This document shows positions 8,522-25,011 of a DNA stretch of 64,000 nt, one piece after another. The DNA is from Zhongshania sp. (GTDB taxonomy: Bacteria > Pseudomonadota > Gammaproteobacteria > Pseudomonadales > Spongiibacteraceae), in the NCBI RefSeq assembly GCF_029212375.1, contig NZ_JARGNU010000005.1:1-64000 (forward strand). Direction: 5' to 3'. The position numbers and the translations under genes were made by a program. Numbering within the stretch: position 1 is the stretch's first letter; each line of letters begins with the position of its first letter. The notes beneath the pieces were generated by a model. The model was not told where the DNA came from. It ran no database searches and saw nothing but the letters and a program-made list of their open reading frames with translations.

Positions 8522-9004
8522 TCTTCTACTTACTCCTAATGATTTTATTATGGCATTAAAGCTATATTATCTAGTCCATTATCGCGATGCCACTACATTC
8601 ACAGCTCGCAGAGCGTTTAAGCTCGCGGCAGCACATTTTGTGCAACTGGCTAAAGTAACTGTAGTCCATTATCTGGTCTATCCGTATAAGCCGAGGCAAA
8701 ATACCAAGGGTTGGGCTAATTTTCAGAAATAATAGCGTTCAAGCGCAAAGATCGGCCCTTTAACGCCTAAGCCGTTGTGCAGTGTGGGAGACAAATTTAA
8801 CGGCTGATGATGACCGTGGTGGTGTATCTATTTTACTGAAATGCACTGCTCTAGTACGGAACGGCAGTGCTTGTCTATTCCATACTCCTTGGCTTGTGGA
8901 AAAACGCGGGTATAAATCAATGGAAATCCCCAAACTTTCCCGCGTTTTGAATTGCGGGCGTAAATGGCTGTGTGCCAGTTCTAAGCCATCTATCTCGTTA
9001 CCAA
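8522..9004. other. Intergenic region, no supported gene
   Basis: Open frames here lack ribosome-binding sites and recognisable protein patterns. An inverted pair GCACTGC (8843-8849) and GCAGTGC (8864-8870) is present. The promoter of the stress-protein gene is expected next to 8522. Confidence 0.4.
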
Positions 9005-9148
9005 TTAAATATGTAGATTCAATACGTCGATTAAGCCAATCGCAATTAAATAGCCGGCAACAATATAGTTAAGCAAGCGCGGCCTGATCAAGATCGCAAC
9101 GCCGGCGGCAATGGATATAATCGGAATGATGTCTAAGGTGATTGTCAT
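9005..9148 (-). CDS. 47-aa DUF3096-like membrane protein
   Basis: A very short gene. The product starts MTITLDIIPIISIAAGVAIL, then a turn IRPRLLNYIV, then a second hydrophobic helix AGYLIAIGLIDVL, the two-helix pattern of DUF3096 proteins (the RPRLLNYIVAxYLIxIG segment is diagnostic as I recall it). The ATG at 9148 has GGGA about 8 nt upstream and the stop TAA is at 9005-9007. Function unknown; likely in the inner membrane. Confidence 0.75.
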   Translation of the reverse strand: MTITLDIIPIISIAAGVAILIRPRLLNYIVAGYLIAIGLIDVLNLHI

Positions 9149-9331
9149 TGTAAGTCCCGTGATGTTAGCGATTGCTTAAGAATTCGATATAGAACCGCTT
9201 GTTGAGTTCAAATCTAATTTTTCTCGAGCAAGATGTCCGCTACTAAAGTAGCACGTTCGTTGTATTTTATCGCTTGCTGTTCGGTGCTGTAATTAGCAAT
9301 AAATACTCAATCAAGCCGCTAAGGATGCGTT

Positions 9332-9766
9332 ATGAATAATTATAACTTTAATGATCAACAACTATCTTGGAACCAGCTTGCGGGTTTTGATCATCTTAAC
9401 TACCTGATTCTCAATGTAGATCGAAAGCGACTTATTGTTGACGTGTTGTTTAAATTCTCGGCCAACCAGAAAATCGCGCTACATCGGCACGTTGCCTTGA
9501 ATCATATGTTTGTTGTTCAAGGTGAACACCGAATTTATAGTGCAGATGGCCGCCTTACCGAAACTCGCCCGACTGGGCGTTACACGGTAAGCCCCGCCAG
9601 CGATGAGCCTCATCAGGAAGGGGGTGGCGATCAAGACGTCATTATATTGTTCAGCATACGAGGAACCAGCGGCACCATGTATGAAATACTGGACGCGCAA
9701 CACAATATCATTGCTACGCTAGGTATAGATGAGTTTGAAAACTTGTACGCAGCGCAAGCCAAGTGA
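9332..9766 (+). CDS. Cupin-fold protein (ChrR/acetylacetone-dioxygenase-like)
   Basis: A 144-aa single-domain beta-barrel protein. Residues about 38-60 show the cupin metal-motif pattern (ALHRHVALNHMFVVQGEHRIY) and the second motif is near 84-92 (SPASDEPHQEGG, His likely a metal ligand), so a metal-binding cupin is likely. AAGGAT precedes the ATG by 6 nt. No neighbour indicates a substrate. It could be an enzyme or a small-molecule sensor. Confidence 0.7.
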   Translation: MNNYNFNDQQLSWNQLAGFDHLNYLILNVDRKRLIVDVLFKFSANQKIALHRHVALNHMFVVQGEHRIYSADGRLTETRPTGRYTVSPASDEPHQEGGGDQDVIILFSIRGTSGTMYEILDAQHNIIATLGIDEFENLYAAQAK

Positions 9767-9776
9767 AATTCTGGCT

Positions 9777-9826
9777 GCTGCTAGCGCCCCGATTTTCTGC
9801 TGGGGCCGCTAACAGCGTTGTTTTAA
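9777..9826 (+). terminator. Probable terminator between convergent cupin and aldehyde dehydrogenase genes
   Basis: Imperfect stem GCTGCTAGCGCCCC (9777-9790) with GGGGCCGCTAACAGC (9802-9816), followed by GTTGTTTTAATT. It starts 10 bp after the cupin stop. Confidence 0.55.
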
Positions 9827-11260
9827 TTAGAGTTTAAATTTCAGCATCAGCTTATACATTTTGTCGAAAGTAGCGCCGTAGGGTGGTGCCATCATGAGCA
9901 GCGCACTCATTGGCCCCTGTTTAAAGATTGGCCGCATTTTTGAAAACTCAATAAAGCCCTCGTGGCCGTGGTAATGGCCCATGCCGCTATTACCTACACC
10001 ACCAAATGGCATGTCGTGCTGCGCGACGTGCACAACGCTGTCATTGATGCACATGCCGCCAGACAGGGTGTTGTAGATGACCTGTTCTTGAACTGCCTTT
10101 TTGTTGCTGTATAAATAGAGTGCTAATGGGCGCTCGTTCGCGTTGATGTATTCAATTACCTCTTCGATCTTGTCGTAGGGCTTAATGGGCAGCAGCGGCC
10201 CAAAAATCTCGTCCTGCATAATCATCATGTCGGAATTAACATCGCACACTAGGTGAGGTGCTAGCTTGCGCAGGGCGTCGTTGTTGGTGGTGTGGTCTAT
10301 CAGATTGACGGCGCGGGCACCTTTACTCGTGGCGTCTTCCAGGGTCTTATTCAGTCGCTGATAGGCCTTTTCGTCAATAATAGATGTGTAGTCGGCGCTG
10401 CTCAGGTTTGGGTAACGCTGCTTGACCACTGTTTTCGCGGCATCAATAAAGGCGCCAACCTTGTGGCGAGGAATAAACACATAGTCTGGCGCTACGCAGG
10501 TCTGCCCAGCGTTCAAAAACTTGCCGTACAAAAGGCGCTCGGCAGCCAGCTTAATATCAAAATCGTCGGCAACTATAGTGGGTGATTTACCGCCCAGTTC
10601 AAGGGTGACCGGCGTCAGGTATTTAGCGGCGGTTTCCATAACGGTTTTCGCAGTGGCTGCTGAGCCAGTGAAAACCAAGTGATCCCAGGGCAGGTGGGTA
10701 AACTCGTGGGCCGAAACTCCCGCCACAACCGCCAGCACGTTTTCGTCAAATTCGGCGCTAATTAATGTCTCCATTAGTCTCGCTAAGGTTTGCGAGTTCG
10801 ACGCCATTTTAATAATGCAGCGATTTCCCGCGGCCAGCGCACTAATCGCAGGACTCAGCGCAAGGAACAGCGGGTAATTCCAAGGGGTAACAATACCGAT
10901 AACGCCTTTAGGCTGCGGAATAACGGTATTTTTTGCGCCGAAGAACGCCAGTCCAACGTGACGCTTCTGGGGCTTCATCCATTTTTTTAGGCGCTTGCGC
11001 GTGTAATTACAGCCGCTGATCAGGCTAAAAATTTCTAGCACCTTAGACTCTTGACTGGGGCGGTTGCCAAAATCAATCGAAATCGCCTCGGCAATCGCGT
11101 CTTGATTTTTTTCCAGCAGTGCAGCGAGTCTATCGAGATGTTGAATTCGTTCCTGCACGCTTGGATAGGGGCTGCGCCGTGACGCCGCGCGCTGGGTATC
11201 GAAAACCTGTGCAATACGTGATTTTTGCTGGATAGGTTGAGCTTCCGCCAAGTTGTTCAT
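9827..11260 (-). CDS. Coniferyl-aldehyde-type NAD(P)-dependent aldehyde dehydrogenase
   Basis: A 477-aa aldehyde dehydrogenase resembling CalB of Pseudomonas. Motifs: VGLAFFGAKNTVIPQPKGVIG in the first part, IGIVTPWNYPLFLALSP (cofactor pocket), VTLELGGKSPTIV with the general-base Glu near residue 217, and LNAGQTCVAPDYV with the catalytic Cys near 251. The start is ATG at 11260 with AGGGGG just upstream; the open frame runs 28 codons further without a ribosome site. The gene stands alone. A C-terminal hydrophobic stretch (MSALLMMAPPYG) is typical of this subfamily. Confidence 0.9.
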   Translation of the reverse strand: MNNLAEAQPIQQKSRIAQVFDTQRAASRRSPYPSVQERIQHLDRLAALLEKNQDAIAEAISIDFGNRPSQESKVLEIFSLISGCNYTRKRLKKWMKPQKRHVGLAFFGAKNTVIPQPKGVIGIVTPWNYPLFLALSPAISALAAGNRCIIKMASNSQTLARLMETLISAEFDENVLAVVAGVSAHEFTHLPWDHLVFTGSAATAKTVMETAAKYLTPVTLELGGKSPTIVADDFDIKLAAERLLYGKFLNAGQTCVAPDYVFIPRHKVGAFIDAAKTVVKQRYPNLSSADYTSIIDEKAYQRLNKTLEDATSKGARAVNLIDHTTNNDALRKLAPHLVCDVNSDMMIMQDEIFGPLLPIKPYDKIEEVIEYINANERPLALYLYSNKKAVQEQVIYNTLSGGMCINDSVVHVAQHDMPFGGVGNSGMGHYHGHEGFIEFSKMRPIFKQGPMSALLMMAPPYGATFDKMYKLMLKFKL

Positions 11261-11591
11261 TGTGCCCCCTATGCTGTAATTGTCTATATAGGTCAGCCGC
11301 TTTCGTAATGAGCGGCCTGCGTACTTTATTAGGTAACTTGCCATCCTATGCCGAATCGCTCAAATAATAAACGCATAGCGGGCATCCGGCGGCAGCGGTG
11401 GCGGGGCGGGCAAACGCGAGGCGGGAGTGGACCTTGGCTGAATGTGAGGCGTCTGCTTAGGGGAGCTTTAAAAATAGGCCCACTACATTTGGGCGCTTTT
11501 ACTCCGGCCGCAAATGTCACGGGTTTTCACCAATAGCGGTGGGCGGTAAATGCATGCCTTCACTTTATTGATAATATATTGATGCTTAAGT
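11261..11591. other. Intergenic region upstream of the aldehyde dehydrogenase gene
   Basis: No gene supported; ORFs on both strands here are GC-rich shadows without ribosome-binding sites. The region marks the left border of the accessory island. Confidence 0.4.
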
Positions 11592-11656
11592 AAAAAAGGC
11601 CGCTAATTAGCGGCCTTTTTTACTGTTTAGAATATTTTCTCTCTAGAGCGAACTGG
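11588..11656. repeat. Island-flanking degenerate direct repeat, left copy (contains a terminator)
   Basis: Starts AAGTAAAA, holds a bidirectional terminator hairpin (GGCCGCTAATTAGCGGCC with A and T runs, 11592-11621), then GAATATTTTCTCTCTA and ends GAACTGG. The same order of elements recurs at 20152-20216 (AAGTAAAA, hairpin ending GGCCTTTTT, GAATATTCTCTCTA, GAACTGG). The two enclose the toxin-antitoxin/defence genes. Confidence 0.6.
11592..11621. terminator. Bidirectional rho-independent terminator
   Basis: Stem GGCCGCTAA/TTAGCGGCC with six A before and six T after. It lies 320 bp downstream of the hipA remnant and about 330 bp upstream of the aldehyde dehydrogenase start. Confidence 0.85.
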
Positions 11657-11940
11657 CGATCGAGCGTTAAGTGACGAACTGTTTAGTCATGAACGGTGTA
11701 AGTTGACAGTTGACGTCTTGCTCCGTGCTAACAAAATCAATGAGTTAGCGGTTTATTGCCAAGCTAAAATCACTATTTATGACACTTGGAAAGCAATATA
11801 TTTGCTAACATACTGTTAAATATAACTTTTTTCCAGTTCTAAAACTGGCTATGATCCGTCAGCTGCAAGCCCTATTGGCCCCCAGGGCATTAAACGAAAA
11901 TGGGGAAACTGCTGAGCGGCGTCAAAGTAGTGGGTATATT
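11657..11940. other. AT-rich intergenic stretch downstream of hipA remnant
   Basis: No gene or clear signal seen; low GC compared with the flanks. Confidence 0.4.
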
Positions 11941-12546
11941 TTATATCGAAAGTAGGCCTTTTATTGCAGAGTAATCTGAATCGCCGACTTTGCACTCTGC
12001 CGCGAAATTTTCCCACTGCTGAATGGCATCCATAATCTGTTCAGCTATGTTTTTTACCGTGGTTTTGTCTAAACCGAATACTTTTCCTTGCTTAATGATC
12101 TCGCTGGGTTTTGGCGGATAAGGCGAGAATTGATAACCAGCAATATGATATGCGCCGGTTGTTAGGCTGGGCACTAAGTCGTATGCGGGTGATAAGCGAT
12201 AACCGCTGCCATCATTGATCATTGAAAAATTGCGCTCGTGATCGCCGGTATTATTGATCGCTCGATTAAACAGCATTTGTCGCAACAGCTGCTCGGCATC
12301 CTCGCGAAAATCGACACTGTGTGATTGCAGTAGCTTATGAACGTCGTCATAACGAAATACACCCGCGTCGTCCCGCTGGTAAGCGTCCTTACGTAAACCG
12401 TTTATAGAAATAAGATGGCGCCGATGTGATTCAGAAATATCAAAGCGTTGCAACAACAGCACATCACGGCCGGTTATATCCTCAACCAGTTCGCCGCCAT
12501 GCACATTAATTCCCGCCGCTTTTGCCATCTTAAGACAGGCTAGCAT
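11941..12546 (-). pseudogene. hipA: HipA-family kinase, N-terminally truncated and missing the catalytic Asp
   Basis: A 201-residue frame covering only the C-terminal half of a HipA-type Ser/Thr kinase (intact proteins are about 400-440 aa). It begins at LACLKMAKAAGINV, the helix that follows the N-lobe, and includes VLLLQRFDIS and HERNFSMINDGSGYRLSPAYDLV. The catalytic loop of the family reads (T/I)D-x-H-x-x-N; here it is TGDHERN, with GGC where GAC would give Asp. Truncation plus loss of the catalytic Asp points to an inactive remnant. It lies 76 bp after the AbiEii-like gene, and no HipB-like antitoxin gene is next to it. Confidence 0.75.
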
Positions 12547-12622
12547 ATTGTCACGACTATTCTATAGTAGGAAAAGATCCAAATGTTTTGCTGCTGCCGT
12601 GCTGGGCGAAAGCGCTACCCGC

Positions 12623-13477
12623 TTATGTGTTGCTGTTGTGTCGAAAAGACTTAATGAACATAGCCAGCAAATCATTGGGTTTACTAAAGCCGTAGCCAGG
12701 CATTTGCTTTATGAGCTGCTTGAGTCGCTCTGGTCGGTCGAATAGCTCCTTGTATAAGTGAGCGCTCGATTTTTTAGTGGCTATCGCAGCCACGTCTCTA
12801 CCAAGTTTTATAGCCGTTGCGAGTGATTCATCATGAGCCGCAGATTCCATGTCACCTTCTTCAAAAAGGGCGCTGTAAATTTCTGGGATTTTTCGATACG
12901 CGTCGAATATGTAATTTATATCGGCAGCATCCTTTTTCTGTTTTACGGGATCGCGCTCTAGCCACGCTATAAGTTTTAATAGCACAATCCCTGCGGGTGA
13001 GGCGACGGTAAGTATTATTTGGGGTTGCTCACTGATTTGTGCTCGTATTGCGTGCTGTTCGACCTGCTCAAATCCTAATACAGACATTACTATGTCGTTG
13101 TTTGGCGGCCAATGAATCTGGTTATTATTCGCGACCTCTCCGAAAGGAATAATATCGACTTCCCACGGCAGTCCGGTGTGGTCGTCGGAAACTAATCGGT
13201 GTGCTATTTGGCGGTCTTCTTTAAGTCCGGCCTGAATCAGCTCACCCTTTAAACGATGGAAATCGTCCCAGCTAGGTACGTTAATAGCGAAATCGACATC
13301 CCTAGTACCACGTTCAATTCTCGCGCCATAGCCGTGCACCAAAATCAAATCCCGCGCCATAGCGCCAACGACTAATAAAGGTATGCCGAGGCCGTCGGCA
13401 ACACGGCAGATCGTCTGGTAAAGCTCTACCAAACCAGCCGGTAGCTTGCCGCTAATGTTAACGAATGTATTGATCAC
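12623..13477 (-). CDS. AbiEii-like nucleotidyltransferase (type IV toxin candidate)
   Basis: A 284-aa protein of the DNA polymerase beta-type nucleotidyltransferase superfamily (COG4849-like). Residues 37-45 (VGAMARDLI) and 58-65 (TRDVDFAI, Asp60 and Asp62) are the Gly/Asp metal-binding core; a third acidic residue is likely in WEVDIIPF near 125-132. In AbiE systems the AbiEii protein is the toxin and transfers nucleotides to RNA targets. Its start overlaps the end of the AbiEi-like gene by 20 bp, so both form one operon under the operator at 14514-14583. Activity not proven by sequence. Confidence 0.82.
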   Translation of the reverse strand: MINTFVNISGKLPAGLVELYQTICRVADGLGIPLLVVGAMARDLILVHGYGARIERGTRDVDFAINVPSWDDFHRLKGELIQAGLKEDRQIAHRLVSDDHTGLPWEVDIIPFGEVANNNQIHWPPNNDIVMSVLGFEQVEQHAIRAQISEQPQIILTVASPAGIVLLKLIAWLERDPVKQKKDAADINYIFDAYRKIPEIYSALFEEGDMESAAHDESLATAIKLGRDVAAIATKKSSAHLYKELFDRPERLKQLIKQMPGYGFSKPNDLLAMFIKSFRHNSNT

Positions 13478-14489
13478 GTAGTTTCTGTGCCGTTTCTATA
13501 TTTCGTGGCTCGTCGCTTGCGATGAGGTCCGCGTAAACCAGCACGGGGTGAGCCATATCACCGTGCGTCTTGTCTTCATAATTCCAGAACGGCTCGAAAA
13601 GGTCGATATTGATGTGTGGTGCTTCAAAAGCATGAATTCGGCGTAAACGAGCCTCTTTTAAAAAAGGATTCATCGCCCCCTTCGGGATATACAGGGTAGC
13701 GTCTTTCGGCGTCAGGTAGTGAGTATACTCAGCCGCCGCTATTTCGCCGCCCCACACTGCGCCATACTTTTGGGGATTTAGCGTCTGCCACCAATGATCA
13801 TTGTCGGTCGTGAAGTTCCCTAAAAATTGCTTCGGCCGTAATTTCTGTGGGTAGGCTTCGGTCCACTCGTCTAAAAGTTGATTGTAATTTGGTAGCTGGC
13901 GTTGTTTGAGTTGCTTATTATCGTCTAGCAGACCTCGTTCCACCAAGTCGCGGATGACCATGCCGACGGCGCCAAGCGCCACGCCTGCCTGCTCTGCGAT
14001 GTCGCGATAGGGCGCGTTAACTAACGCCTTATTGATGAGAAATGCATAGATGATTCTCATGCCGGTCGGCTGAAAAGCTTTTCCACTGGGCTTTTTATTT
14101 GTTGTTTGCGGTGCCGGCTTTTTGCCGTTAATAAAAACGTAAATAGGGGGCTGATTGAGATAGGCGTTGCCCGCAGTATCAAGAAACTGAACCTTCGCCT
14201 CTTTAAGCTTTTCGGCTTTACGGGGATCTATATAATCGGCAATGAGAACGCCGTTGCCAAGTTTAGCAATCTGCTGCATTTTTGCGACTAAATTGCCGGC
14301 GGCTGCGTTCGCAGCCCATTTTTTTACCTCAACCTTAAGCTTCTTACCTGTGTCCAGTAGGTGCAGTACGCCGTCGCCATCTTGATCTGTTACTGGTATT
14401 GGATCAAATGCTAGCCTAAGACCGGTTTCATTCTGAAACTGTTCAATGGCGATCTCGACTATGCGCTGTTCATCAAGTGCGTTATTCAT
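13458..14489 (-). CDS. AbiEi-like antitoxin/transcription regulator
   Basis: A 343-aa protein resembling the AbiEi_2 family (PF09952/COG4861). The N-terminal part has a restriction-nuclease-like strand pattern (LKVEVKKWA, VLIADYIDP), and residues about 160-188 form a winged helix-turn-helix (YRDIAEQAGVALGAVGMVIR). The C-terminal part (WGGEIAAAEYTHYLTP, LYIPKGA) is typical of the family. AbiEi proteins bind their own promoter and counteract AbiEii. It is the first gene of the pair, directly downstream of a cluster of TGTTCA half sites. Confidence 0.82.
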   Translation of the reverse strand: MNNALDEQRIVEIAIEQFQNETGLRLAFDPIPVTDQDGDGVLHLLDTGKKLKVEVKKWAANAAAGNLVAKMQQIAKLGNGVLIADYIDPRKAEKLKEAKVQFLDTAGNAYLNQPPIYVFINGKKPAPQTTNKKPSGKAFQPTGMRIIYAFLINKALVNAPYRDIAEQAGVALGAVGMVIRDLVERGLLDDNKQLKQRQLPNYNQLLDEWTEAYPQKLRPKQFLGNFTTDNDHWWQTLNPQKYGAVWGGEIAAAEYTHYLTPKDATLYIPKGAMNPFLKEARLRRIHAFEAPHINIDLFEPFWNYEDKTHGDMAHPVLVYADLIASDEPRNIETAQKLRDQYIR

Positions 14490-14513
14490 TTCTGTTAACG
14501 TGGCTGAATACGA

Positions 14514-14583
14514 TGTTCATTAATGTATCATGTTCACAATTTGTGAACAATAGCTCATATTGAACAAAGGGGGGTGCTGTTCA
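14514..14583. promoter_or_regulatory. Multi-site operator of the AbiE-like operon
   Basis: A perfect 19-bp palindrome TGTTCACAATTTGTGAACA (14531-14549) with three further half sites around it: TGTTCA at 14514-14519, TGAACA at 14561-14566 and TGTTCA at 14578-14583. It starts 24 bp before the antitoxin ATG. This fits cooperative self-repression by the winged-helix AbiEi protein, as known for other AbiE pairs. Confidence 0.75.
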
Positions 14584-14790
14584 TTTGCGGTGGCTGTTTG
14601 CGTGACGGGGCCCTAGATTCCTAGGGGCGTCGCGTTATTTTAAATCGCCTGTACGGCGACCGCTCACCGAGCTTTGCCATATCGCGGAGCATAATCACAG
14701 CGAGTGATTCTATCGGCTAATGGGGCAGGTGATGCCGAACTGGGAAAGTATAAAATATAGGTCGGATTGGATGGTGCATACTATTTTATT
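14584..14790. other. Intergenic region between the 437-aa gene and the AbiE operator
   Basis: Holds an imperfect GC-rich inverted repeat around 14601-14635 (CCCTAG-ATT-CCTAGGG core) that may end transcription of the upstream gene. No ORF supported. Confidence 0.4.
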
Positions 14791-16104
14791 TTAGCAACCA
14801 CGATAATCGGCCTTTTTAAAATAGGCCCCGCTCCGCGCAGTATCGAGCTGCGGGAAATGGTTTTCTAACTTGTAAGTTGCGACAAGTATTTCCGCGGTAT
14901 CATTTTTTTTCAAGAAGTATAATGATTTAAGTACGTTGCGCGCGAAATTGGTCTTTTCTAACACATGGAAAAAATTGGCTCGAAATTCGTCTTGAGATCT
15001 CTTCAGGCATGCAATATTTTCCCGTAAATGCCCTTCGTAAATTCGAGAGTAATTTTCCGAAAAGTCGTATGTCGGGTCTAGGTAGAATAGAGCTTGGAGT
15101 CCAGCTAGAATATCCGGAGTTAGAATTGGTTCGATCTCTTGCCAAATAACTTTTTGATCTTCGGCATCTTTAATCCAAGCTGGAATCATGTCGTGGGCAC
15201 TAATGTTTTTTTCAGCTATCTTTTTTGGCTTATCCTGGTGCGCTAATGGATGTATTTTTAGCCAATTTCGAAAGGTCTCCATTATATCCTGATCTTTGAG
15301 TCCAAGTAGTTGTGGTGATATTCCAATTAAGGGGGCAAATTCAAAGTGTAACTTAATTATATTGATGCTGGCTGAAAGCTCATTGCTTCCGATATTGAAG
15401 ACCGATTTTATCTGCTCCCTTTGAGTGCTAAACAATGGGTCTTTCCATTGGTTGTGATGAGGTAGCATGCGGGCAATTAAGAATATTTTTTTTCTGGATA
15501 AGTTATTTGTAATCGTTTTTGTTCCATATTCTTCGCATAGATAGTCGTTTAGATGATGAAGTTCATCCAATATGGATTCCAGTGTGGAGAACCGTTGTTT
15601 TAAATTCACGAAATTAATAATCGCTACTTCAACTAGGTGTTTCTGGCTGGCAATGTCAGTCGGGTAGCGGAAGGTCTGGCCTGTGGGGTCGACTTGTGCA
15701 AAGTCATATATCATTGGTTGTAAACGGGCGTTGATGGCTACGTATCGATCGTCAATTGACTCCGATTTTGTCCGGAAAAAGTCCCATATATTTCCTATGT
15801 CATGTGACCCATTAGTGTCAAAGCTAAATTGAGTTCTCCTTAACTTTTCAATTAATGCTAGTTCTGATGTCGCTCCTTTTAAGCGAAGTTCAATTGAATG
15901 TCGCATGTTGAAGCAAACAGGATAGATGATTTCATCTACGGAATATTCTGAATTTTGATCGGTGAGTACAATGTCTATTAGGAGGTTGGCGGCTTGAGAG
16001 TACCCCTTTGCATACTCCCAGTAGCTGGGCTGGCCATTTTCTCCCACGCAAGCATTTGCCCATGTGGGGCTTCCGCCACAGAATGTCTTATTGTCTGTAG
16101 TCAT
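14791..16104 (-). CDS. 437-aa protein with HEPN-like N-terminal motif, unknown function
   Basis: No firm family assignment. Residues about 60-77 read YPVCFNMRHSIELRLKG and residues about 100-110 HDIGNIWDFF. This pairing, RHxIELxLK then HDxxxLWxxF, is what I recall from uncharacterised proteins predicted to have HEPN-like helical folds, a group that includes toxin RNases. The remainder is helical and charged, without signal peptide or membrane segments. The weak ribosome site precedes ATG at 16104. It lies in the defence island between the AbiE-like operon and the 83-aa repeat protein; the terminator at 16132-16163 separates it from the latter, so it should have its own promoter. Confidence 0.6.
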   Translation of the reverse strand: MTTDNKTFCGGSPTWANACVGENGQPSYWEYAKGYSQAANLLIDIVLTDQNSEYSVDEIIYPVCFNMRHSIELRLKGATSELALIEKLRRTQFSFDTNGSHDIGNIWDFFRTKSESIDDRYVAINARLQPMIYDFAQVDPTGQTFRYPTDIASQKHLVEVAIINFVNLKQRFSTLESILDELHHLNDYLCEEYGTKTITNNLSRKKIFLIARMLPHHNQWKDPLFSTQREQIKSVFNIGSNELSASINIIKLHFEFAPLIGISPQLLGLKDQDIMETFRNWLKIHPLAHQDKPKKIAEKNISAHDMIPAWIKDAEDQKVIWQEIEPILTPDILAGLQALFYLDPTYDFSENYSRIYEGHLRENIACLKRSQDEFRANFFHVLEKTNFARNVLKSLYFLKKNDTAEILVATYKLENHFPQLDTARSGAYFKKADYRGC

Positions 16105-16131
16105 TTCTGGACTGTGACGCCTCTTAATGTA

Positions 16132-16163
16132 ATAAAAAAGCCGAAGCTAGATAGCTTCGGCTT
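16132..16163 (-). terminator. Terminator downstream of the 83-aa repeat-protein gene
   Basis: Stem AAGCCGAAGCTA/TAGCTTCGGCTT; read on the minus strand it is followed by TTTTTTATT. It ends about 70 bp after the stop at 16232. Confidence 0.85.
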
Positions 16164-16231
16164 AAGGTAGGTGTTCGTTGGGCTCAACTCTTTAGTGCCT
16201 CTGGTATTGCAATAAGCCACTTTGCTTCGCG

Positions 16232-16483
16232 CTATTTTTTCCTATCGGGTCTTTGGGTAAGCGCAGAGCCAGATGCGGATTTGGCCGCTTTACTTGCTCC
16301 CGGAGATCGTAGTGTTTTTGAGGCTGCTGTACTTGCTTTTGAGCTTGTAACTTTATTTGGGGCTTTTGTTTGGCTTAATGTAGACCCAGCCGCAGACTTT
16401 GCTGCTTTGGATGAGCTTGCGCTCCGCAGCACCGTGGAGGCTGCTGATGCAGCCTTTTTACTAGTGACTTCCTTTTTCGTCAT
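16232..16483 (-). CDS. 83-aa Lys/Ala/Ser-rich protein with two tandem repeats
   Basis: The protein consists almost wholly of two copies of a ~30-residue unit: SKKAASAASTVLRSASSSKA + AKSAAGSTLSQ and SKASTAASKTLRSPGASKA + AKSASGSALTQ. I have seen this motif in small bacterial proteins of unknown function, often near toxin genes. It is very basic and probably cytosolic or nucleic-acid-associated. GGAG lies 9 nt before the ATG and a strong terminator follows. A direct TAGTGA pair lies about 150 bp upstream (16636-16664). Confidence 0.75.
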   Translation of the reverse strand: MTKKEVTSKKAASAASTVLRSASSSKAAKSAAGSTLSQTKAPNKVTSSKASTAASKTLRSPGASKAAKSASGSALTQRPDRKK

Positions 16484-16840
16484 TTTCTAATACTCCAATC
16501 AAGTGAAGAAAATGTATCTAGTCCGGTCTTAAAGTTTCGGCTTGTCCAGCCTCTAAATGTTTCTGATGTCGGTAATTGTCATTAGAGGCGATCCCGTATC
16601 CCCCGGTATACGGGCGTTTCAGTCGTCTGTGTCATTAGTGAAAATCTTGTTTTTTCGCTAGTGAAAATACTCATATAAAAATCAATAAGTTACGTGCGTG
16701 TCGTAAACGGCAAAAAAAGCCAATATCAGCCCAAAGCAATAACCAGAGTCTAATTGCGCGCTGGGTAATGTATGGTGCTTTCGATCTAGGGAGAACACTA
16801 CCAATTCGGCAGTAACGTTGACTACAACTAATTATAGCCG
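16484..16840. promoter_or_regulatory. Promoter region of the 83-aa gene with inverted repeat and TAGTGA pair
   Basis: Contains CCCGTAT-N8-ATACGGG (16593-16614) and two TAGTGA direct repeats 23 bp apart (16636-16641, 16659-16664), the latter similar to a pair at 20735-20761. No gene supported. No clear terminator follows the SIR2 gene stop at 16841. Confidence 0.4.
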
Positions 16841-19800
16841 CTAGACAAACTCAAAATCATTACATTTAAGGCCTGAATAGCTATACCCAACTGTGAATTC
16901 GGCTTCGTCTCCGCTTTCTAATAAAGAAAAATTATCTTCTCCAATATCGCTTTCGTGTAGCATTATTGGCAGTGAAAGTCGATTTATAGTAAAGAACCCG
17001 TAGGAAGCAGCGCGTTTGAGCATTCTGCCTCTTACGCGAACTGGTACCCCGTCTTTTGAGTAATGGTCTCTGATGGTGATTCTTGACGAATGTGAAACTC
17101 GCGCTCGTCGCAGTCCCGGAAATATTCCCTCAGCTTTTTGTATTAGTTTCTGATCGTTGGACTCTAATGCAAATCTTGCGAACCAGAATTGAGCTTCATG
17201 GTTTTGATCTCCTGGACTAAAAGATCTCTGAAAGAAATAGCACAGTTCTTCGTTGTCGGCATTTCCCGAATCCCTTAGGGTCTTAGCCAATGCGAAGTTT
17301 ATTCGATGATCAGATCTGCGTTTTTCTTGAGCGCTTCTTAATATTTTCAGTGCAGAATCGTAATCGCCGCTGTCTTGGTAATGTTTTGCTAGCCGTATTG
17401 CAACGAATGGATCGCGATTGTCTTGCTCAAAAGCGCTTTTTAGGGCTCCGATCGCTCTTGGCTTATCTTTGAGGATTGAGGCGAAATGCGCCTCAAGTGT
17501 AAGTAGCCCGGCTTCAGAAGGAAACCTTCCCTTACTATCGCTTAATAATTTCTCGGCTTCCCTGATTGCATGATCAATTACTCTGTCAGGTATTTTGTCA
17601 TCTGCTAGCAGATCTTCTAAATCATCTAGAGCTAGTTTTACTAAAACTGAATAGATTGCAGTAGTGTAACCATTTCTTTGGGCTAGGTTGGAGAGTATTG
17701 ATCTGGCTTCCCTCCTGTATTTGGCTCGGAGAGCCAGGTCTGTGACGCTATCTGCCCACGAGCGCCACACGACGGCTGTGCTATGTAGAATAGAATTGTC
17801 ATGCGGCGCTTTCGAACGGGCCTCTCCAAGGAGTTCTATTGCTTCGCGATGATTACCATTGTCTCTAATTCGCTCATAATTCGCCATCTGTTGAAGAATG
17901 TAGGGTTCCCTTCCAATCGTCTCTAAGGCCTGGTCGTAAATGCCTTTAATGTCACCGTAGTCACTGAATAGCTCGATAAGACTTTTTGCTCTTATCAGCA
18001 AACGCAGAGATTGCTTATCGGTTTCAAATGCTACATTTAAAGCGCCGATGAGTCTAATGTACTCATGATAACGGTCTAGTTGATTTTTAAATGCGGAGTT
18101 AAAGACGATTTCAGCGATTTCAGGATGGCGCGCAAAGTAGTGGACGTCGTGGTCTGTTTTTCCCGATGAGAGTACGACGTTCTGGAGGGGGAGGAAAAAG
18201 TCATTTTGGAATTTTTCAAAAGTTATGCCTGCGATTCTTGATATAAGTCCTGCACGTACGGGGACGCGAAGTCGATTTAATACACATATTGTGCGATAGA
18301 GCAGTTTTGCGTCGCTTGGTTCAAGTGACTCGTATTCGTCTTGAATTATGTCCTCAAAGCGTTTTCCTAGTGTAACTTCATGAAGAGCTACTAATAGCTG
18401 TCTACCAAACGCTTCCGAGAATTTTTGTTCTCTTTCGGCTTGCGAAAGAGGCTTTAGTGCTGGGCCGAGGCAATCGTATTTTTCGAGCAGTAAAACTAGG
18501 TCTCTTATTTCTCGTTTTCCTAGGTATGGAAGTGTGAATTCATCTGTTAAGAATGGTTCAAGAAGTTCTTCGCATTTAGTGTGCCACTCAGCATATCTTT
18601 CCGCAGATACAATTGTTACTGGGATCTCCGAAGAGCGTAATTTCCTAATTAAGTTTGATATCGCTATTGCATTGTCAGAGGCATTATCCCAAAAGATAAA
18701 TATTCGTTCGCGAGTTCTTTTGTAAAGAATACTTAGGATTTCAAAATTTACGTTGCCGGAAGAGCTGATATATATGCAGAGGCGACCACTTGTTATTGCT
18801 GCGTCATAGCTCAAGCGTCGGAGGAGTATTGTTTTTCCTGAACCGGCTTCGCCTTTGATTAAGTAAAAGTTTACTAACCCGAGGCGATCTTCCTCTGTCG
18901 ACTCAATAATTTCTGAAAGAAGCTTTTTCCCTAGAGTTCTTTTAACATCGAGTTCGTTGGCGATAGGAAACCAATCTAGGCCTGCACCACTATAAAAAGT
19001 TGAAGGTTCTCCGGCGCCTGTATCCATTGATGGATGAATATATTCAGCATCGTTTTCGAAAAACGTTAGGATTTCTGCGTCTGGTTCAGTGCGCTCGACA
19101 AATTTTGATTGAATCGCATGCTCTCGAGGAGGGATGATCATCGACAAGCTTCGTTCTGTTTTTGATACTCTGTTATCTAAAGCATTAATGAACTCGGCGA
19201 GACCACAGTTAATCACCGTCACTCTTTTGGATGCCCAAAAGTCAATCTCAGGTTGTTTTGATCCGGGTTTGACAAGATAGTATCGTGGTCTTCCATGAAG
19301 GCATTCTTTGTCCACCATTGTAATTATTTGACGGATGTTGGCGTCCTTTAAGCTATGCCCTACGAATACCATTGTATTCTCAAATGCCACTTGATATAGG
19401 TAGTTAAACAACCCTTTTCTTTTGTCCATATAGTCATTGTACTGTTCAACTGTAAGGATCAGCGGAAGGTCTTTGTCGCGATGCCTTGTTATACATCCGT
19501 GTAATTTTATTAGTGGAACATGTAGTTCGGTACGACTGCTTTCATCAATGCCGTCGTTTTGGGAGATTATGGGCCGGCACTCCTGTAGTCGAGCGGGCTG
19601 CGCCTTATAGCTATCCTCGATCAGAAGGTCATAATTTGTAGTGAATAAAGCTCTCCATTTAAATAATGGTATTTTTTTGTGAAAATCAGCCGGCTTAATT
19701 CCGATAAACTGATCGGCTACAAACTGTTGGAATTGGATTAATCCAGCTTGAGATATCGCCAGCTCAGAAACAAATTGAAGACTTTCCTCTTTGTATTCAC

Positions 19801-19963
19801 CGCCTAAAAATTGAGCGCATATAATGCTCTTTAGGTCGTCTCCAAGTAGTAATTTTTTATCTGAGGGGAATTCGGCCCCGAATAATGCTCCAGACCCAAA
19901 AAGAAGTGCTACTCGTCCACGCTTTATCTCTTGAACTAAGTGATCATGTTGCACTAGCGGCAT
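16841..19963 (-). CDS. SIR2-STAND NTPase-TPR protein with C-terminal cold-shock-like OB domain (putative antiphage defence)
   Basis: A 1040-aa protein. Residues 1-265 form a SIR2-like NAD+-binding domain: LLFGSGA (20-26), FTTNYD (107-112), IKLHG (152-156) and VGHSLKDANIRQI (201-213). A P-loop NTPase follows: GEAGSGKT at 371-378 and Walker B-like IFIFWDNA at 421-428, then a winged-helix region to about 630. Residues ~680-945 are helical pairs of TPR type. The last ~70 residues (VRVRGRMLKRAASYGFFTI... SDIGEDNFSLLESGDEAEFTV) look like a cold-shock/OB domain. SIR2-STAND proteins (Avs5-like) deplete NAD+ on phage sensing; this role is inferred. GAGG lies 7 nt before the ATG. Monocistronic, AT-richer than the flanks. 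Confidence 0.85.
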   Translation of the reverse strand: MPLVQHDHLVQEIKRGRVALLFGSGALFGAEFPSDKKLLLGDDLKSIICAQFLGGEYKEESLQFVSELAISQAGLIQFQQFVADQFIGIKPADFHKKIPLFKWRALFTTNYDLLIEDSYKAQPARLQECRPIISQNDGIDESSRTELHVPLIKLHGCITRHRDKDLPLILTVEQYNDYMDKRKGLFNYLYQVAFENTMVFVGHSLKDANIRQIITMVDKECLHGRPRYYLVKPGSKQPEIDFWASKRVTVINCGLAEFINALDNRVSKTERSLSMIIPPREHAIQSKFVERTEPDAEILTFFENDAEYIHPSMDTGAGEPSTFYSGAGLDWFPIANELDVKRTLGKKLLSEIIESTEEDRLGLVNFYLIKGEAGSGKTILLRRLSYDAAITSGRLCIYISSSGNVNFEILSILYKRTRERIFIFWDNASDNAIAISNLIRKLRSSEIPVTIVSAERYAEWHTKCEELLEPFLTDEFTLPYLGKREIRDLVLLLEKYDCLGPALKPLSQAEREQKFSEAFGRQLLVALHEVTLGKRFEDIIQDEYESLEPSDAKLLYRTICVLNRLRVPVRAGLISRIAGITFEKFQNDFFLPLQNVVLSSGKTDHDVHYFARHPEIAEIVFNSAFKNQLDRYHEYIRLIGALNVAFETDKQSLRLLIRAKSLIELFSDYGDIKGIYDQALETIGREPYILQQMANYERIRDNGNHREAIELLGEARSKAPHDNSILHSTAVVWRSWADSVTDLALRAKYRREARSILSNLAQRNGYTTAIYSVLVKLALDDLEDLLADDKIPDRVIDHAIREAEKLLSDSKGRFPSEAGLLTLEAHFASILKDKPRAIGALKSAFEQDNRDPFVAIRLAKHYQDSGDYDSALKILRSAQEKRRSDHRINFALAKTLRDSGNADNEELCYFFQRSFSPGDQNHEAQFWFARFALESNDQKLIQKAEGIFPGLRRARVSHSSRITIRDHYSKDGVPVRVRGRMLKRAASYGFFTINRLSLPIMLHESDIGEDNFSLLESGDEAEFTVGYSYSGLKCNDFEFV

Positions 19964-20306
19964 TCTTTGACCTCATCCTAAGGTTGATAATTTCGTATTA
20001 CGATTAACTTGATTTTATTTGCGAAACGGGCCCTATTGTTGCGAAAGAGTTGTAGGGCGCTGTTCCGTGATTATGACTATTTTCTTTAATTTTTAGTTTA
20101 AAAGACTTCTATTCGAAAGTGGCTTTATTTTGTAACTACATGACTATTTATAAGTAAAAGACCACTTTAGGTGGCCTTTTTGACGATCTTGGAATATTCT
20201 CTCTATCGTGAACTGGGGCACCTTAACGCTATAGTATTTAGATTCTTGAAGATTGTCTCCGAGGAATAAGCATTCTCGCAAGAACTCGTTTCCCCACTTA
20301 TCAGTT
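19964..20306. other. Promoter region of the SIR2-STAND gene and right island border
   Basis: AT-rich; no gene supported. It contains the right copy of the island-flanking repeat (20152-20216). Confidence 0.5.
20152..20216. repeat. Island-flanking degenerate direct repeat, right copy
   Basis: AAGTAAAA, a short hairpin CCAC-TTTA-GGTGG followed by CCTTTTT (plus-strand terminator-like), then GAATATTCTCTCTA and GAACTGG. Same order and orientation as 11588-11656, about 8.5 kb away. Confidence 0.6.
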
Positions 20307-20435
20307 TTACTTCTTTGTGGACTTACTAGGTTTTAAGCTAGGAGTATTTCCTGGAGTGGTTTTGTTGTCGCGTCGACGTTGATCGGGTTTTCCAGTCGAT
20401 TTGGCTGTTGGTTTCGGGCCGGGTTTAAGTGCCAT
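20307..20435 (-). CDS. 42-aa very basic protein, unknown function
   Basis: The product starts MALKPGPKPTAKSTGKPDQR and ends PSLKPSKSTKK: rich in Lys, Pro, Thr, no hydrophobic core, likely disordered. AAAGGA lies about 8 nt before the ATG at 20435. The pattern of a well-placed ribosome site and a lysine-rich, in-frame, compact product supports a real small gene. Its composition is like that of the 83-aa protein at 16232-16483, and both have TAGTGA pairs upstream. Confidence 0.5.
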   Translation of the reverse strand: MALKPGPKPTAKSTGKPDQRRRDNKTTPGNTPSLKPSKSTKK

Positions 20436-20784
20436 AATGCTTTTCCTTTAACGTTTAATGGTAAGTCGAACATACATCATGTTGTTGACACTGGTTTGTC
20501 TGTTCATTAGATAGTAATAGGCTGGTATTCACATGCACCTATCTATTCGGTATATGTACTTTGTTCGGCTTATTACCAATCAGCCGACAACCATCATTTC
20601 TTTCATGTGATAGCTCTATATTTCTGGGTACTCAAGAAAAGCACTGCAATACTTTAAGTCTCTCATTGCAATGCTATATCCAGAGCTTAAAATCAATTCT
20701 CTCGCTTTTGTCTAACCCCTTGCGGGATCATCACTAGTGACAAAATGTCGTTCTCTAGTGAGAATTGCCGGATGTCACTTGTAC
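20436..20784. other. Intergenic region downstream of nrdB with TAGTGA pair
   Basis: No gene or clear terminator for nrdB. Two TAGTGA repeats, 21 bp apart (20735-20740 and 20756-20761), lie 300 bp upstream of the 42-aa gene. Confidence 0.4.
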
Positions 20785-22023
20785 CTACCAAGTCAACGCC
20801 CCACCAGTCTGATACTCAATAACCCGCGTCTCAAAGAAGTTTTTCTCTTTACGCAAGTCCATGATTTCGCTCATCCATGGGAATGGGTTTTGCGCGCCGG
20901 GGAATTGTTCTTTTAAGCCGAGCTGGCTTAGGCGGCGGTTGGCGATGAATTGGAGGTATTCTTCCATCATGCCGGAGTTCATGCCGAGTACGCCGCGGGG
21001 CATTGAGTCTTTGGCGTATTCGATTTCGAGCTGCATGCCTTCAACGATCATTTGGGTCACTTCGCCTTGGAATTTTTCGCTCCATAGGTGTGGGTTTTCC
21101 AGTTTGATTTGGTTGATCATGTCGATGCCGAAGTTCAGGTGCATAGACTCGTCGCGGAGTATGTACTGGAACTGTTCGGCGATGCCGGTCATTTTGTTGC
21201 GGCGGCCCATAGACAGAATTTGGGTGAAGCCGCAGTAGAAGAAGATGCCTTCGGTGACGGCGTAGAAGCCAATCAGGTTGCGGAGCAGTTCCTGGTCGGT
21301 TTCTGGGGTGCCGGTGTGGAAGGTGGGGTCGCCCAATGCGTGGGTGTGCTGCAGGCTCCACGCCGCTTTTTTGGCGATGGAGGGCAGTTCGCGATACATA
21401 TTGAACACTTCGGCTTCGTCCATGCCCAGCGACTCTACGCAGTACTGGTAGGCGTGGGTGTGAATGGCTTCTTCAAAGGCTTGGCGCAGCAAGTATTGGC
21501 GGCACTCTGGGTTGGTGATGTGACGGTATACCGCCAGTACCAAGTTGTTGGCAACCAAGGAATCGGCCGTTGAGAAGTAACCCAGTGAGCGCATGATGAT
21601 GCGGCGCTCGTCGTCGGTAAGGCCTTCTGGATTTTTCCACATGGCGATGTCGGCGGTCATGTTTACTTCTTGGGGCATCCAGTGGTTGGCGCAGCCGTCG
21701 AGGTATTTCTGCCATGCCCAGTCGTACTTAAAGGGTACGAGCTGGTTGAGGTCGAGATGGCAGTTGATGATGCGCTTGTCTTCTACCCGCAAACGGGCCG
21801 CGCCCATTTCCAGTTCTTCTAAACCGGCGGCTACGTCTAGGCTTTCGAGAGCAGCGTTGGCTTTGTCGAGAATAGCTTGGTCGACAGCAGCGGCGCTGTC
21901 TTCGCTATTCATGGTGTTCAGTGCAGCCGATACCACAGGCTCCGCTGTTTTAGGGGCTTGGGGTTTGGCAGCTGGCGCTTTGGCAGGTGCTTCTTCTTTA
22001 TCGAACTCATCCCAACTTAACAT
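20785..22023 (-). CDS. nrdB: Ribonucleoside-diphosphate reductase class Ia, beta (radical) subunit
   Basis: A 412-aa NrdB. It holds the diiron centre and tyrosyl radical needed by NrdA to make dNDPs. Residues 1-75 are an Ala/Pro-rich N-terminal extension as in pseudomonads. The metal-ligand and radical region is [18 protein letters not shown] (183-200; radical Tyr probably 192) and the second ligand cluster is [15 protein letters not shown] and [11 protein letters not shown] (Glu and His ligands). The C-terminus ([15 protein letters not shown]) is the tail that docks on NrdA. GAGG lies 7 nt before the ATG. It is downstream of nrdA, separated by 90 bp that carry a heptad repeat. Confidence 0.97.
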
Positions 22024-22057
22024 TTTATAACCTCAATATTCTTTTATATGTGTTTTT

Positions 22058-22087
22058 CGTCAGACGCCTGACGTCGGACGTCAGACG
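22058..22087. repeat. Heptad intergenic repeat, GGACGTC type, inside the nrdA-nrdB gap
   Basis: Units CGTCAGACG, CCTGACGTCGGACGTC and AGACG make a near-palindrome with 7-bp periodicity. It lies between the nrdA stop and the nrdB ribosome-binding site, so it is transcribed with the operon and can fold. Confidence 0.7.
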
Positions 22088-22113
22088 AAGGGGCTCTTTC
22101 GAACCCCGCCGCT

Positions 22114-25011
<2,898 letters not shown>

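What the first reader, a model, noticed from the sequence alone, without database searches (positions are those of the whole stretch)
16841..19963. SIR2-STAND-TPR protein ending in a cold-shock-like OB domain
The sequence shows an N-terminal SIR2 NADase-like domain, a P-loop NTPase, a helical-repeat region and, at 975-1040, a stretch with the alternation of a cold-shock/OB fold (RVRGRMLKRAASYGFF, then LLESGDEAEFTV). Known SIR2-STAND defence proteins use the C-terminus to sense a phage product. A nucleic-acid-type OB fold at the end suggests RNA or DNA sensing in this branch. It is a strong candidate for an undescribed variant of the Avs5-like antiphage class, in an island with other TA genes.
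Basis: partly seen in the sequence, partly recalled or inferred. Interest (0 to 1): 0.75.

Follow-up and report, generated by a model that had tools for sequence, protein, structure and literature searches.

The report
SIR2-STAND immune protein with cold-shock tail
This bacterial gene encodes a probable phage-triggered suicide protein (NAD-destroying head, switch-like ATPase, repeat region) that ends in a cold-shock-type nucleic-acid-binding domain, the same order of parts as in the core of the human antiviral protein SAMD9; it belongs to a family that I did not find described or tested.

Summary
The gene at 16841-19963 (minus strand) encodes 1040 aa: SIR2, nSTAND NTPase (PF25199), TPR helices and a C-terminal cold-shock domain (CSD). 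The window's own CSD is diverged (PF00313 E 0.013, below cut-off), but the family tail profile finds solved CSDs at E 7.5e-11, the E. coli relative passes the Pfam cut-off, and the tail models as a CspA-like barrel (pLDDT 95). All 29 full-length members aligned, the window included, match the tail profile. Asn110, His155 and Walker Lys377 are invariant. Relatives occur in a P4 satellite hotspot, prophages, plasmids and beside restriction genes, which suggests an antiphage role. It is kin to Avs5 but fails that family model. Its domain order equals the SIR2-STAND-TPR-OB core published for SAMD9 in 2017; SAMD9 chains hold Foldseek ranks 2-7. Best reading: a one-gene abortive-infection receptor whose TPR-CSD tail is its sensor or lock. 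Nucleic-acid sensing by the CSD is plausible (RNP aromatics kept in 29-31 of 31 members) but not shown, and the window's copy has lost one of these aromatics. New variant of a known kind.

The parts
16841..19963 (-). whole gene, 1040 aa, SIR2-nSTAND5-TPR-CSD protein
19154..19963 (-). SIR2 NADase-like domain, residues 1-270 (Pfam match 105-251 = 19211-19651); Asn110 at 19634-19636, His155 at 19499-19501
   Evidence: SIR2_2 E 1.2e-21; profile to ThsA 5.9e-17 and DSR2 4.4e-15, His155 opposite DSR2 His171 as counted on the printed alignment; both invariant in A3 and A4
18563..19000 (-). nSTAND_NTPase5 P-loop domain, residues 322-467; Walker A GEAGSGKT 18830-18853, Walker B strand 18686-18703
   Evidence: PF25199 E 2.2e-27; Lys377 invariant; strand from the model; motif names recalled
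18089..18562 (-). NTPase C-terminal part and presumed winged helix, residues 468-625, with invariant Arg612-His613 (18125-18130), read as an MHD-like nucleotide contact (inference)
   Evidence: highest mean pairwise identity of the eight regions compared, 0.44; invariance
17084..18088 (-). helical / TPR region, residues 626-960, including the conserved AQFW.AR repeat just before the CSD
   Evidence: Pfam TPR, helical in AlphaFold2, alignment
16844..17050 (-). C-terminal cold-shock (OB) domain, residues 972-1040; RNP1 Tyr988-Gly989-Phe990 at 16994-17002, RNP2 residues 1000-1004 at 16952-16966
13458..14489 (-). AbiEi-type antitoxin/regulator (neighbour, context only)
   Evidence: PF09952 E 3.4e-35
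12623..13477 (-). AbiEii-type nucleotidyltransferase toxin (neighbour, context only)
   Evidence: PF08843 E 2.6e-9
11941..12546 (-). HipA C-terminal fragment, 201 aa (neighbour, context only)
   Evidence: PF07804 positions 40-211 of 213
14791..16104 (-). 437-aa protein without a family match; relatives on plasmids (neighbour, not shown to be part of the system)

Best explanation
It is a one-gene STAND immune receptor that kills or stalls the infected cell. At rest the NTPase holds nucleotide and the TPR-CSD tail keeps the SIR2 heads apart (inferred). During infection the C-terminal half is engaged: the TPR solenoid reads a ligand, and the cold-shock barrel, fixed to the last AQFW repeat, contacts single-stranded RNA or DNA or a nucleoprotein (inferred). 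The NTPase exchanges nucleotide and oligomerises (inferred from STAND proteins), the SIR2 heads assemble and NAD+ is degraded (inferred from DSR2, ThsA and Avs5). Shown here: the order and predicted folds of the domains, the conserved catalytic, Walker and RNP residues, the family's mobility, and its place in an antiviral hotspot. Estimates: antiphage role 0.9; NAD+ consumption as effector 0.85; CSD contacts nucleic acid 0.5; CSD is the main trigger-reading element 0.35.
For: Domains. Asn110, His155, Lys377, Arg612 and His613 are invariant in both A3 (14 rows) and A4 (24 rows), together 29 different proteins with the window. His155 aligns with DSR2 His171, the residue changed in PDB entries titled DSR2 H171A (that it is the catalytic one is recalled). 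CSD fold. RNP1 aromatics in 31 and 29 of 31 members, RNP2 aromatic in 30 of 31, Trp/Phe loop position in 26 of 31, while the CSD as a whole has mean pairwise identity 0.27. Locations: psu-gene-int in an E. coli P4-like satellite and int-gene-weak Psu match in L015, which is the published antiphage hotspot (PMC9122126 passages); an origin-nicking (gpA-like) protein and portal/terminase flanks in L011, consistent with the P2 hotspot; of 10 neighbours that I picked from 8 loci, 8 match PADLOC models, among them Hma, HKD-Snf2/DrmD, type IIG RM, PDC-S06/PrrC-like and GajB ones. Low GC, 0.426 against 0.51 for the window. Same domain order as the SAMD9 core (PMC5445408).
Against: No function was measured. 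The window's own CSD is more diverged than the average (mean identity to the others 0.19 against 0.27 over all pairs), is below the PF00313 cut-off, and its RNP2 aromatic is Met1001, the one exception in 31. The last RNP2 Phe typical of cold-shock proteins is mostly lost (aromatic in 4 of 31), the RNP2 His is kept in 13 of 31, and the N-terminal Trp column did not align well enough to judge. The CSD is not basic overall (window copy 7 K+R against 10 D+E). Known Avs proteins and DSR2 sense phage proteins. Relatives without a CSD exist (L125-L128), so the switch does not need it in principle. Some neighbours are ordinary housekeeping genes, and PADLOC models of helicases, methylases and primases also match non-defence proteins.
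Confidence: 0.55

Rival explanations
1. The TPR solenoid alone senses a phage protein, as in Avs and DSR2, and the cold-shock barrel is a structural cap or an autoinhibitory lock that contacts the protein's own NTPase or SIR2 domain; it binds no nucleic acid.
For: TPR 736-900 and CSD are equally variable (mean pairwise identity 0.27 each), as sensors of protein ligands often are; the CSD follows directly on the last repeat; the window copy has lost an RNP2 aromatic; SAMD9/9L gain-of-function mutations cluster in the NTPase and C-terminal half, read as loss of autoinhibition (PMC13245274 passages).
Against: The RNP aromatics, which lie on the surface in cold-shock proteins (recalled), are kept in 29-31 of 31 members although the rest of the domain drifts.
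Confidence: 0.33
2. Integrated decoy: the tail imitates host cold-shock proteins, and a phage protein that binds host Csp trips the receptor, like integrated domains of plant NLRs.
For: The tail profile recognises small cold-shock-like ORFs in many genomes (154 of 398 genomes with a match at E 1e-6); the Foldseek list includes a phage endolysin bound to CspC (8h1i).
Against: The endolysin complex may be a purification artefact (inference); family CSDs drift far from host Csp (own copy not found by PF00313 at E 0.001), which a decoy should not.
Confidence: 0.07
3. Not an immune receptor but a regulator or addiction module of mobile elements; or a decayed copy in this genome.
For: The window's CSD is diverged; some relatives elsewhere are broken (L004, L010, L019, L090, L104).
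Against: The window ORF is intact with the catalytic residues; relatives in an antiviral hotspot and beside defence genes.
Confidence: 0.05

Closest known systems
Avs5 (AVAST type 5, SIR2-STAND; EfAvs5 PDB 9jap, AVAST5 filament 9nc9)
   Same: SIR2 head, STAND NTPase, helical repeats; best sequence match of the NTPase in the PDB (E 1.4e-9) and first Foldseek match (E 4.1e-24)
   Different: The solved Avs5 chains have 769-869 residues; Avs5 has nSTAND3 and TPR/Sel1/PPR repeats, no cold-shock domain mentioned (PMC12931631 passages); the window protein scores 31.4 bits against the Avs5 cut-off of 1000, has nSTAND5 and a CSD tail
SAMD9/SAMD9L family (animals, some bacteria)
   Same: [quoted passage not shown] Foldseek ranks 2-7 with query TM 0.35-0.42 over 1185-1281 columns; tail matches SAMD9 9zjs_B with query TM 0.51 over 172 columns, rank 46
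   Different: No AlbA_2 (tRNase) domain here; Walker A is GKT instead of GGT/S; SIR2 keeps Asn and His of the active site; no SAMD9 chain among the 60 best of 246 PDB sequence matches, the only ones shown
DSR2 (defence-associated sirtuin 2)
   Same: SIR2 domain, His155 opposite His171; NAD+ depletion on a phage trigger (abstract in the listing)
   Different: 39.9 bits against the Dsr2 cut-off of 1400; one matched stretch, in the SIR2 domain; no CSD tail known to me (recalled)
P4-hotspot STAND proteins with SIR2, TIR or nuclease heads (Rousset et al. 2022)
   Same: Same place: between psu and int in an E. coli P4-like satellite; STAND with C-terminal repeats and a SIR2 head is mentioned (PMC9122126 passages)
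   Different: I did not look for a cold-shock domain in that text; whether its table lists this family could not be checked (supplements not available)

Membership tests
Avs5 | scores over the NCBIfam Avs5 equivalog cut-off | tested here: not met
   31.4 bits against 1000; PADLOC Avs5 E 2.7e-5, best stretch 100-206
Avs5 | nSTAND3 NTPase (PF20720) | tested here: not met
   16.7 bits against 27.2, while nSTAND_NTPase5 reaches 96.1 against 34; nSTAND3 matches 16 of 24 A4 members at E<=1, best 2.2e-6
Avs5 | SIR2 head (PF13289) and C-terminal helical repeats | tested here: met
SAMD9 family | SIR2-like, STAND P-loop, TPR, C-terminal cold-shock-like OB in this order | tested here: met
   definition from PMC5445408
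SAMD9 family | AlbA_2 domain before SIR2 (lost in some members) | tested here: not met
   none of the 25 Pfam families listed starts before residue 105, and PADLOC ThsA matches from residue 9
SAMD9 family | GGT/S instead of GKT/S in Walker A | tested here: not met
   GEAGSGKT; Lys377 invariant in A3 and A4
SAMD9 family | significant full-length sequence similarity to SAMD9 | tested here: inconclusive
   profile A4 against PDB sequences: no SAMD9 among the 60 shown of 246; profile A7: none among the 60 shown of 115; fold similarity only
DSR2 | scores over the NCBIfam Dsr2 cut-off | tested here: not met
   39.9 bits against 1400
nSTAND_NTPase5 proteins (PF25199) | over the Pfam gathering score | tested here: met
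   96.1 against 34 bits; a PF25199 match at E<=1 in 14 of 14 and 24 of 24 members scanned
Cold-shock domain (PF00313) | over the Pfam gathering score in the window protein | tested here: not met
   15.8 against 27 bits; met by the E. coli relative, 38.0 bits
Cold-shock domain (PF00313) | cold-shock barrel with RNP1 and RNP2 aromatics | tested here: met
   predicted fold; RNP aromatics 31, 29 and 30 of 31, the window copy lacking the RNP2 one
NAD+-depleting antiphage sirtuins | NAD+ loss on phage challenge | not testable with these tools
   needs a bench test

The most novel reading that the evidence does not exclude
The cold-shock tail is a real nucleic-acid sensor, so that this is a STAND immune receptor set off by phage RNA or single-stranded DNA (or nucleoprotein) rather than by a phage protein alone; and the family is a bacterial form of the SAMD9 core in which SIR2 is still the working effector, so that the unknown trigger and lock of SAMD9 can be studied in E. 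coli.
Probability: 0.3. Interest if true: 0.82.

Novelty: new variant of a known kind. Interest (0 to 1): 0.6.

Why it matters
The exact triggers of SAMD9/9L activation are stated to be unknown (PMC12331169 passages), and a review calls the functions of the bacterial homologues harder to predict (PMC13245274 passages). This family gives the SIR2-STAND-TPR-cold-shock order in one gene with an intact SIR2 active site, one member sitting in the P4 hotspot of an E. coli strain. Phage escape mutants and RNP, SIR2 and Walker mutants would show directly what a cold-shock tail on a STAND receptor senses, and whether it reads nucleic acid.

Tried and rejected
Avs5 membership: rejected on model scores and NTPase type. 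CSD by chance: rejected by the family profile and predicted fold. Tail spread to other effectors: not found. Searching the TPR-CSD tail (A5) in 398 phylum genomes, 154 had a match at E 1e-6; among the matches listed (a capped list) only the own gene covers the whole tail, the others cover the CSD part, mostly in ORFs of cold-shock size plus a few of about 340 aa that I did not study. The 7 of 7 viral loci found with A5 and the 5 of 5 plasmid records found with the tail of L011 were SIR2 proteins already in hand. Hymenobacter L130 as a diverged CSD case: inconclusive (hhalign probability 5%, E 0.0073). Tree: the window gene groups with plasmid, phage, satellite and genome members (98/96), but a single origin of the CSD was not tested; two of the rows without CSD (L125, L129) and L130 sit on very long branches. 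Rfam search of 9000-23000 and tRNA search of the window: nothing. Promoter scan no better than shuffles. A PF25199 search of 398 genomes at E 0.001 hit 394, flooded by ordinary P-loop proteins; 22 passed the cut-off, the own genome among them, and I fetched the surroundings of five. Papers opened that did not bear on it, passages only: PMC12724215, PMC13092281, PMC12169576, PMC11221667.
Full report
What is there. The ORF at 16841-19963 is on the minus strand and encodes 1040 aa. Pfam gives SIR2_2 (105-251, E 1.2e-21), nSTAND_NTPase5 (322-467, E 2.2e-27), TPR (best stretch 836-889, E 1.4e-8) and a weak cold-shock domain (982-1026, E 0.013, 15.8 bits against a cut-off of 27). NCBIfam also gives CspE for 987-1036 at E 0.012. 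A PF00313 search of the own genome lists five other places and not this one, so the window copy alone would not prove the tail.

The tail is a cold-shock domain. The family proves it. A profile of 19 tails (A6) finds solved cold-shock domains as its best PDB matches: UNR E 7.5e-11, CspE 3.8e-10, CspB (1csp) 9e-9 and CspA (1mjc) 1.5e-8. Scanned singly, with the window protein counted, 9 of 14 A3 members and 20 of 24 A4 members match PF00313 at E<=1, best 1.2e-9; the others show no such match. The E. coli relative passes the Pfam cut-off with 38.0 bits. The A6 profile matches 29 of 29 full-length members, including 10 that were not among its rows (worst E 3.6e-12). AlphaFold2 on the 24-sequence alignment gives mean pLDDT 83.3 and pTM 0.52, with a barrel at 976-1039; the pTM means that the placement of the domains against each other is unsure. 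Residues 905-1040 alone give pLDDT 95.2 and pTM 0.86. Foldseek with that tail model ranks CspA first (E 3.3e-4, target TM 0.80) and UNR second, with YB-1 among the first eight; lysyl-tRNA synthetase OB folds are mixed in from rank 3.

A real family. Full-length relatives at 27-45% protein identity come from plasmids (25 records with a match, 14 covering at least 80%), viral contigs (47 loci, of which 9, L011-L019, reach the tail) and genomes (18 loci). Of these 18 loci, 14 are intact ORFs with the tail and were aligned; L090 keeps the tail but its ORF starts near the end of the SIR2 part; L104 is cut short; L101 is a SIR2-CSD protein without the middle; L105 is a distant SIR2 protein. Record titles include gamma-, alpha- and deltaproteobacteria, Ignavibacteriales, Flavobacterium and Melainabacteria. 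It is rare: 3 of 369 genomes of the class at E 1e-20, the own one included, and 1 of 5426 E. coli genomes for a near DNA match to the gene of L013. The 29 proteins of A3 and A4 together were chosen as full-length ORFs, so their all having the tail is no census.

Conserved residues. Asn110, Asp112, His155, Gly374, Gly376, Lys377, Arg612 and His613 are invariant in both A3 (14 rows) and A4 (24 rows). The SIR2 profile aligns His155 with His171 of DSR2, the residue that the PDB titles name as changed (H171A), as counted on the printed alignment; it finds ThsA at 5.9e-17, DSR2 at 4.4e-15, KomC at 9.1e-15 and Avs5 at 4.4e-11 and 1.1e-9, the best match being 7uxt (E 1.5e-20). In the CSD of 31 members, the window included, the first RNP1 position is Tyr or Phe in 30 and His in 1, the second is Phe in 29, the RNP2 aromatic is Phe or Tyr in 30, and a loop position is Trp or Phe in 26. 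The RNP2 His is kept in 13 of 31 and the last RNP2 Phe is mostly lost (aromatic in 4 of 31) (the first 10 or so columns of that alignment, including the cold-shock Trp, are not reliable). The one exception at the RNP2 aromatic is the window protein itself (Met1001). That these aromatics stack on nucleic acid in CspA and CspB is recalled knowledge. Mean pairwise identity is 0.27 for the CSD, 0.27 for residues 736-900, 0.38 for SIR2 and 0.44 for residues 468-625; the window's CSD averages 0.19 to the others. So the domain drifts while its RNP face largely stays, which favours a nucleic-acid surface but does not prove it, least of all for the window's own copy. The CSD is not basic overall.

Where it lives. 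In E. coli N18-04097 the gene lies between psu and int of a P4-like satellite. Relatives L012-L014 sit beside a phage integrase, L013 also with a DNA primase (phrog_2249) further off, and L015 has int on one side and a weak Psu match (E 5.4e-4, below cut-off) on the other. The interval between psu and int is the published P4 reservoir of antiviral systems (PMC9122126, passages). L011 has an origin-nicking (gpA-like) protein on one side and portal and terminase on the other, consistent with the P2 hotspot of the same paper. L017 is one ORF away from a Mu-type portal. L005 is next to type I RM genes. Of 10 neighbours that I picked from 8 loci for PADLOC, 8 match a model: Hma methylase and ATPase (L089), HKD-Snf2/DrmD-like helicase (L091), type IIG RM (L100), PDC-S06/PrrC-like (L092), primase-polymerase and type IV restriction-like (L097), PDC-S19 (L095), GajB-like helicase (L102); two L103 neighbours match none, one of them being Mrr-like by Pfam. 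Such models also match non-defence helicases and methylases. Other neighbours are ordinary genes: hydantoinase and a chemotaxis protein at L088, an AMP-binding enzyme at L098, YchF at L099. In the window the gene stands with AbiEi/AbiEii and a HipA piece, and its GC is 0.426 against 0.51 for the window and 0.55 for nrdA, which suggests import.

What it resembles. By sequence the NTPase profile finds EfAvs5 (E 1.4e-9) and nothing else below 0.0043. By fold the whole model ranks EfAvs5 first (E 4.1e-24, query TM 0.26) and human SAMD9 second to seventh (E 5.6e-21 to 4.5e-18, query TM 0.35-0.42 over 1185-1281 columns), ahead of Avs5 filaments and DSR2. The rmsd values are 21 A or more, so these are domain-by-domain matches and not rigid superpositions; the aligned ranges were not given. 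The tail model also matches SAMD9 9zjs_B with query TM 0.51 over 172 columns, but only at rank 46 (E 3.9e-3). Mekhedov, Makarova and Koonin (PMC5445408, parts 1 and 2 of 4 read) defined the SAMD9 core as AlbA_2, SIR2-like, STAND P-loop, TPR and an OB fold most similar to cold-shock proteins, in animals and some bacteria, with GGT/S in Walker A; they say that AlbA_2 is missing in many bacterial members, which then have a kinase domain, so I cannot exclude that their set holds relatives of this gene. The window protein shares the order from SIR2 to OB, lacks AlbA_2, and has GKT and an intact SIR2 site. No SAMD9 chain was among the matches shown in the sequence searches (60 of 246; 60 of 115), so homology to SAMD9 along the whole length is supported by order and fold, not by sequence.

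Variants nearby. nSTAND5 also occurs with SIR2 and no detected CSD (L126, L127, L128, 818-839 aa) and with a metallophosphatase head and no detected CSD (L125). The SIR2-nSTAND5-CSD proteins are thus one variant of a modular set; in a tree of the NTPase the window gene joins eight others (L005, L011-L014, L019, L088, L090) with support 98/96.

How it most likely works. Shown: the parts, their order, the conserved active-site residues, the mobile and partly defensive settings. Inferred from DSR2, ThsA and Avs5: infection-triggered NAD+ loss. Inferred from STAND proteins: nucleotide-dependent opening and oligomerisation. Open: whether the CSD reads nucleic acid, locks the resting state, or binds a protein. 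I put nucleic-acid contact at 0.5 and its being the main trigger at 0.35.

What is known in print. Searches of the open-access library for SIR2 with STAND and cold shock, for nSTAND with SIR2, for SAMD9 with bacterial OB folds, and for PF25199 and four relatives' accessions gave no description of this family that I could recognise (listings, with passages of the papers named above). Subscription papers and supplements were not searched, and the table of the P4 paper may list a member.

Noticed in passing
L101:119-1102: A MAG contig encodes a 327-aa protein in which SIR2 (69% identical to L097) runs straight into the CSD without NTPase and TPR; natural two-domain form, internal deletion or assembly error.
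   Followed up: partly
   Followed up: no
L004:854-1444: In one relative the C-terminal part is on a separate ORF that keeps the AQFW repeat but then runs into sequence that looks like an Xre-type antitoxin instead of a CSD (antitoxin likeness recalled).
   Followed up: no
L010, L019, L090, L104: Several relatives have the gene split or the SIR2 part outside the ORF; seven Klebsiella plasmid records are listed with two features under the match, of which one was viewed. This might be expected for a costly killer.
   Followed up: no
window 14791-16104: 437-aa protein without any family match; relatives on 100 plasmid records (41 Klebsiella, 22 Escherichia; 72 predicted conjugative).
   Followed up: partly
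window 16232-16483: 83-aa Ala/Ser/Lys-rich ORF with an internal repeat (SKAAKSA.G), histone-tail-like in make-up.
   Followed up: no
window 11941-12546: HipA C-terminal piece of 201 aa that lacks the first part of the family (profile 40-211), perhaps a remnant.
   Followed up: no
CSD of family members, turn before the last strand: The family CSD has a conserved GF(N/S/T)YRGP-like turn with Phe or Tyr in 31 of 31 where CspE has Asn, a family feature of unknown role.
   Followed up: no
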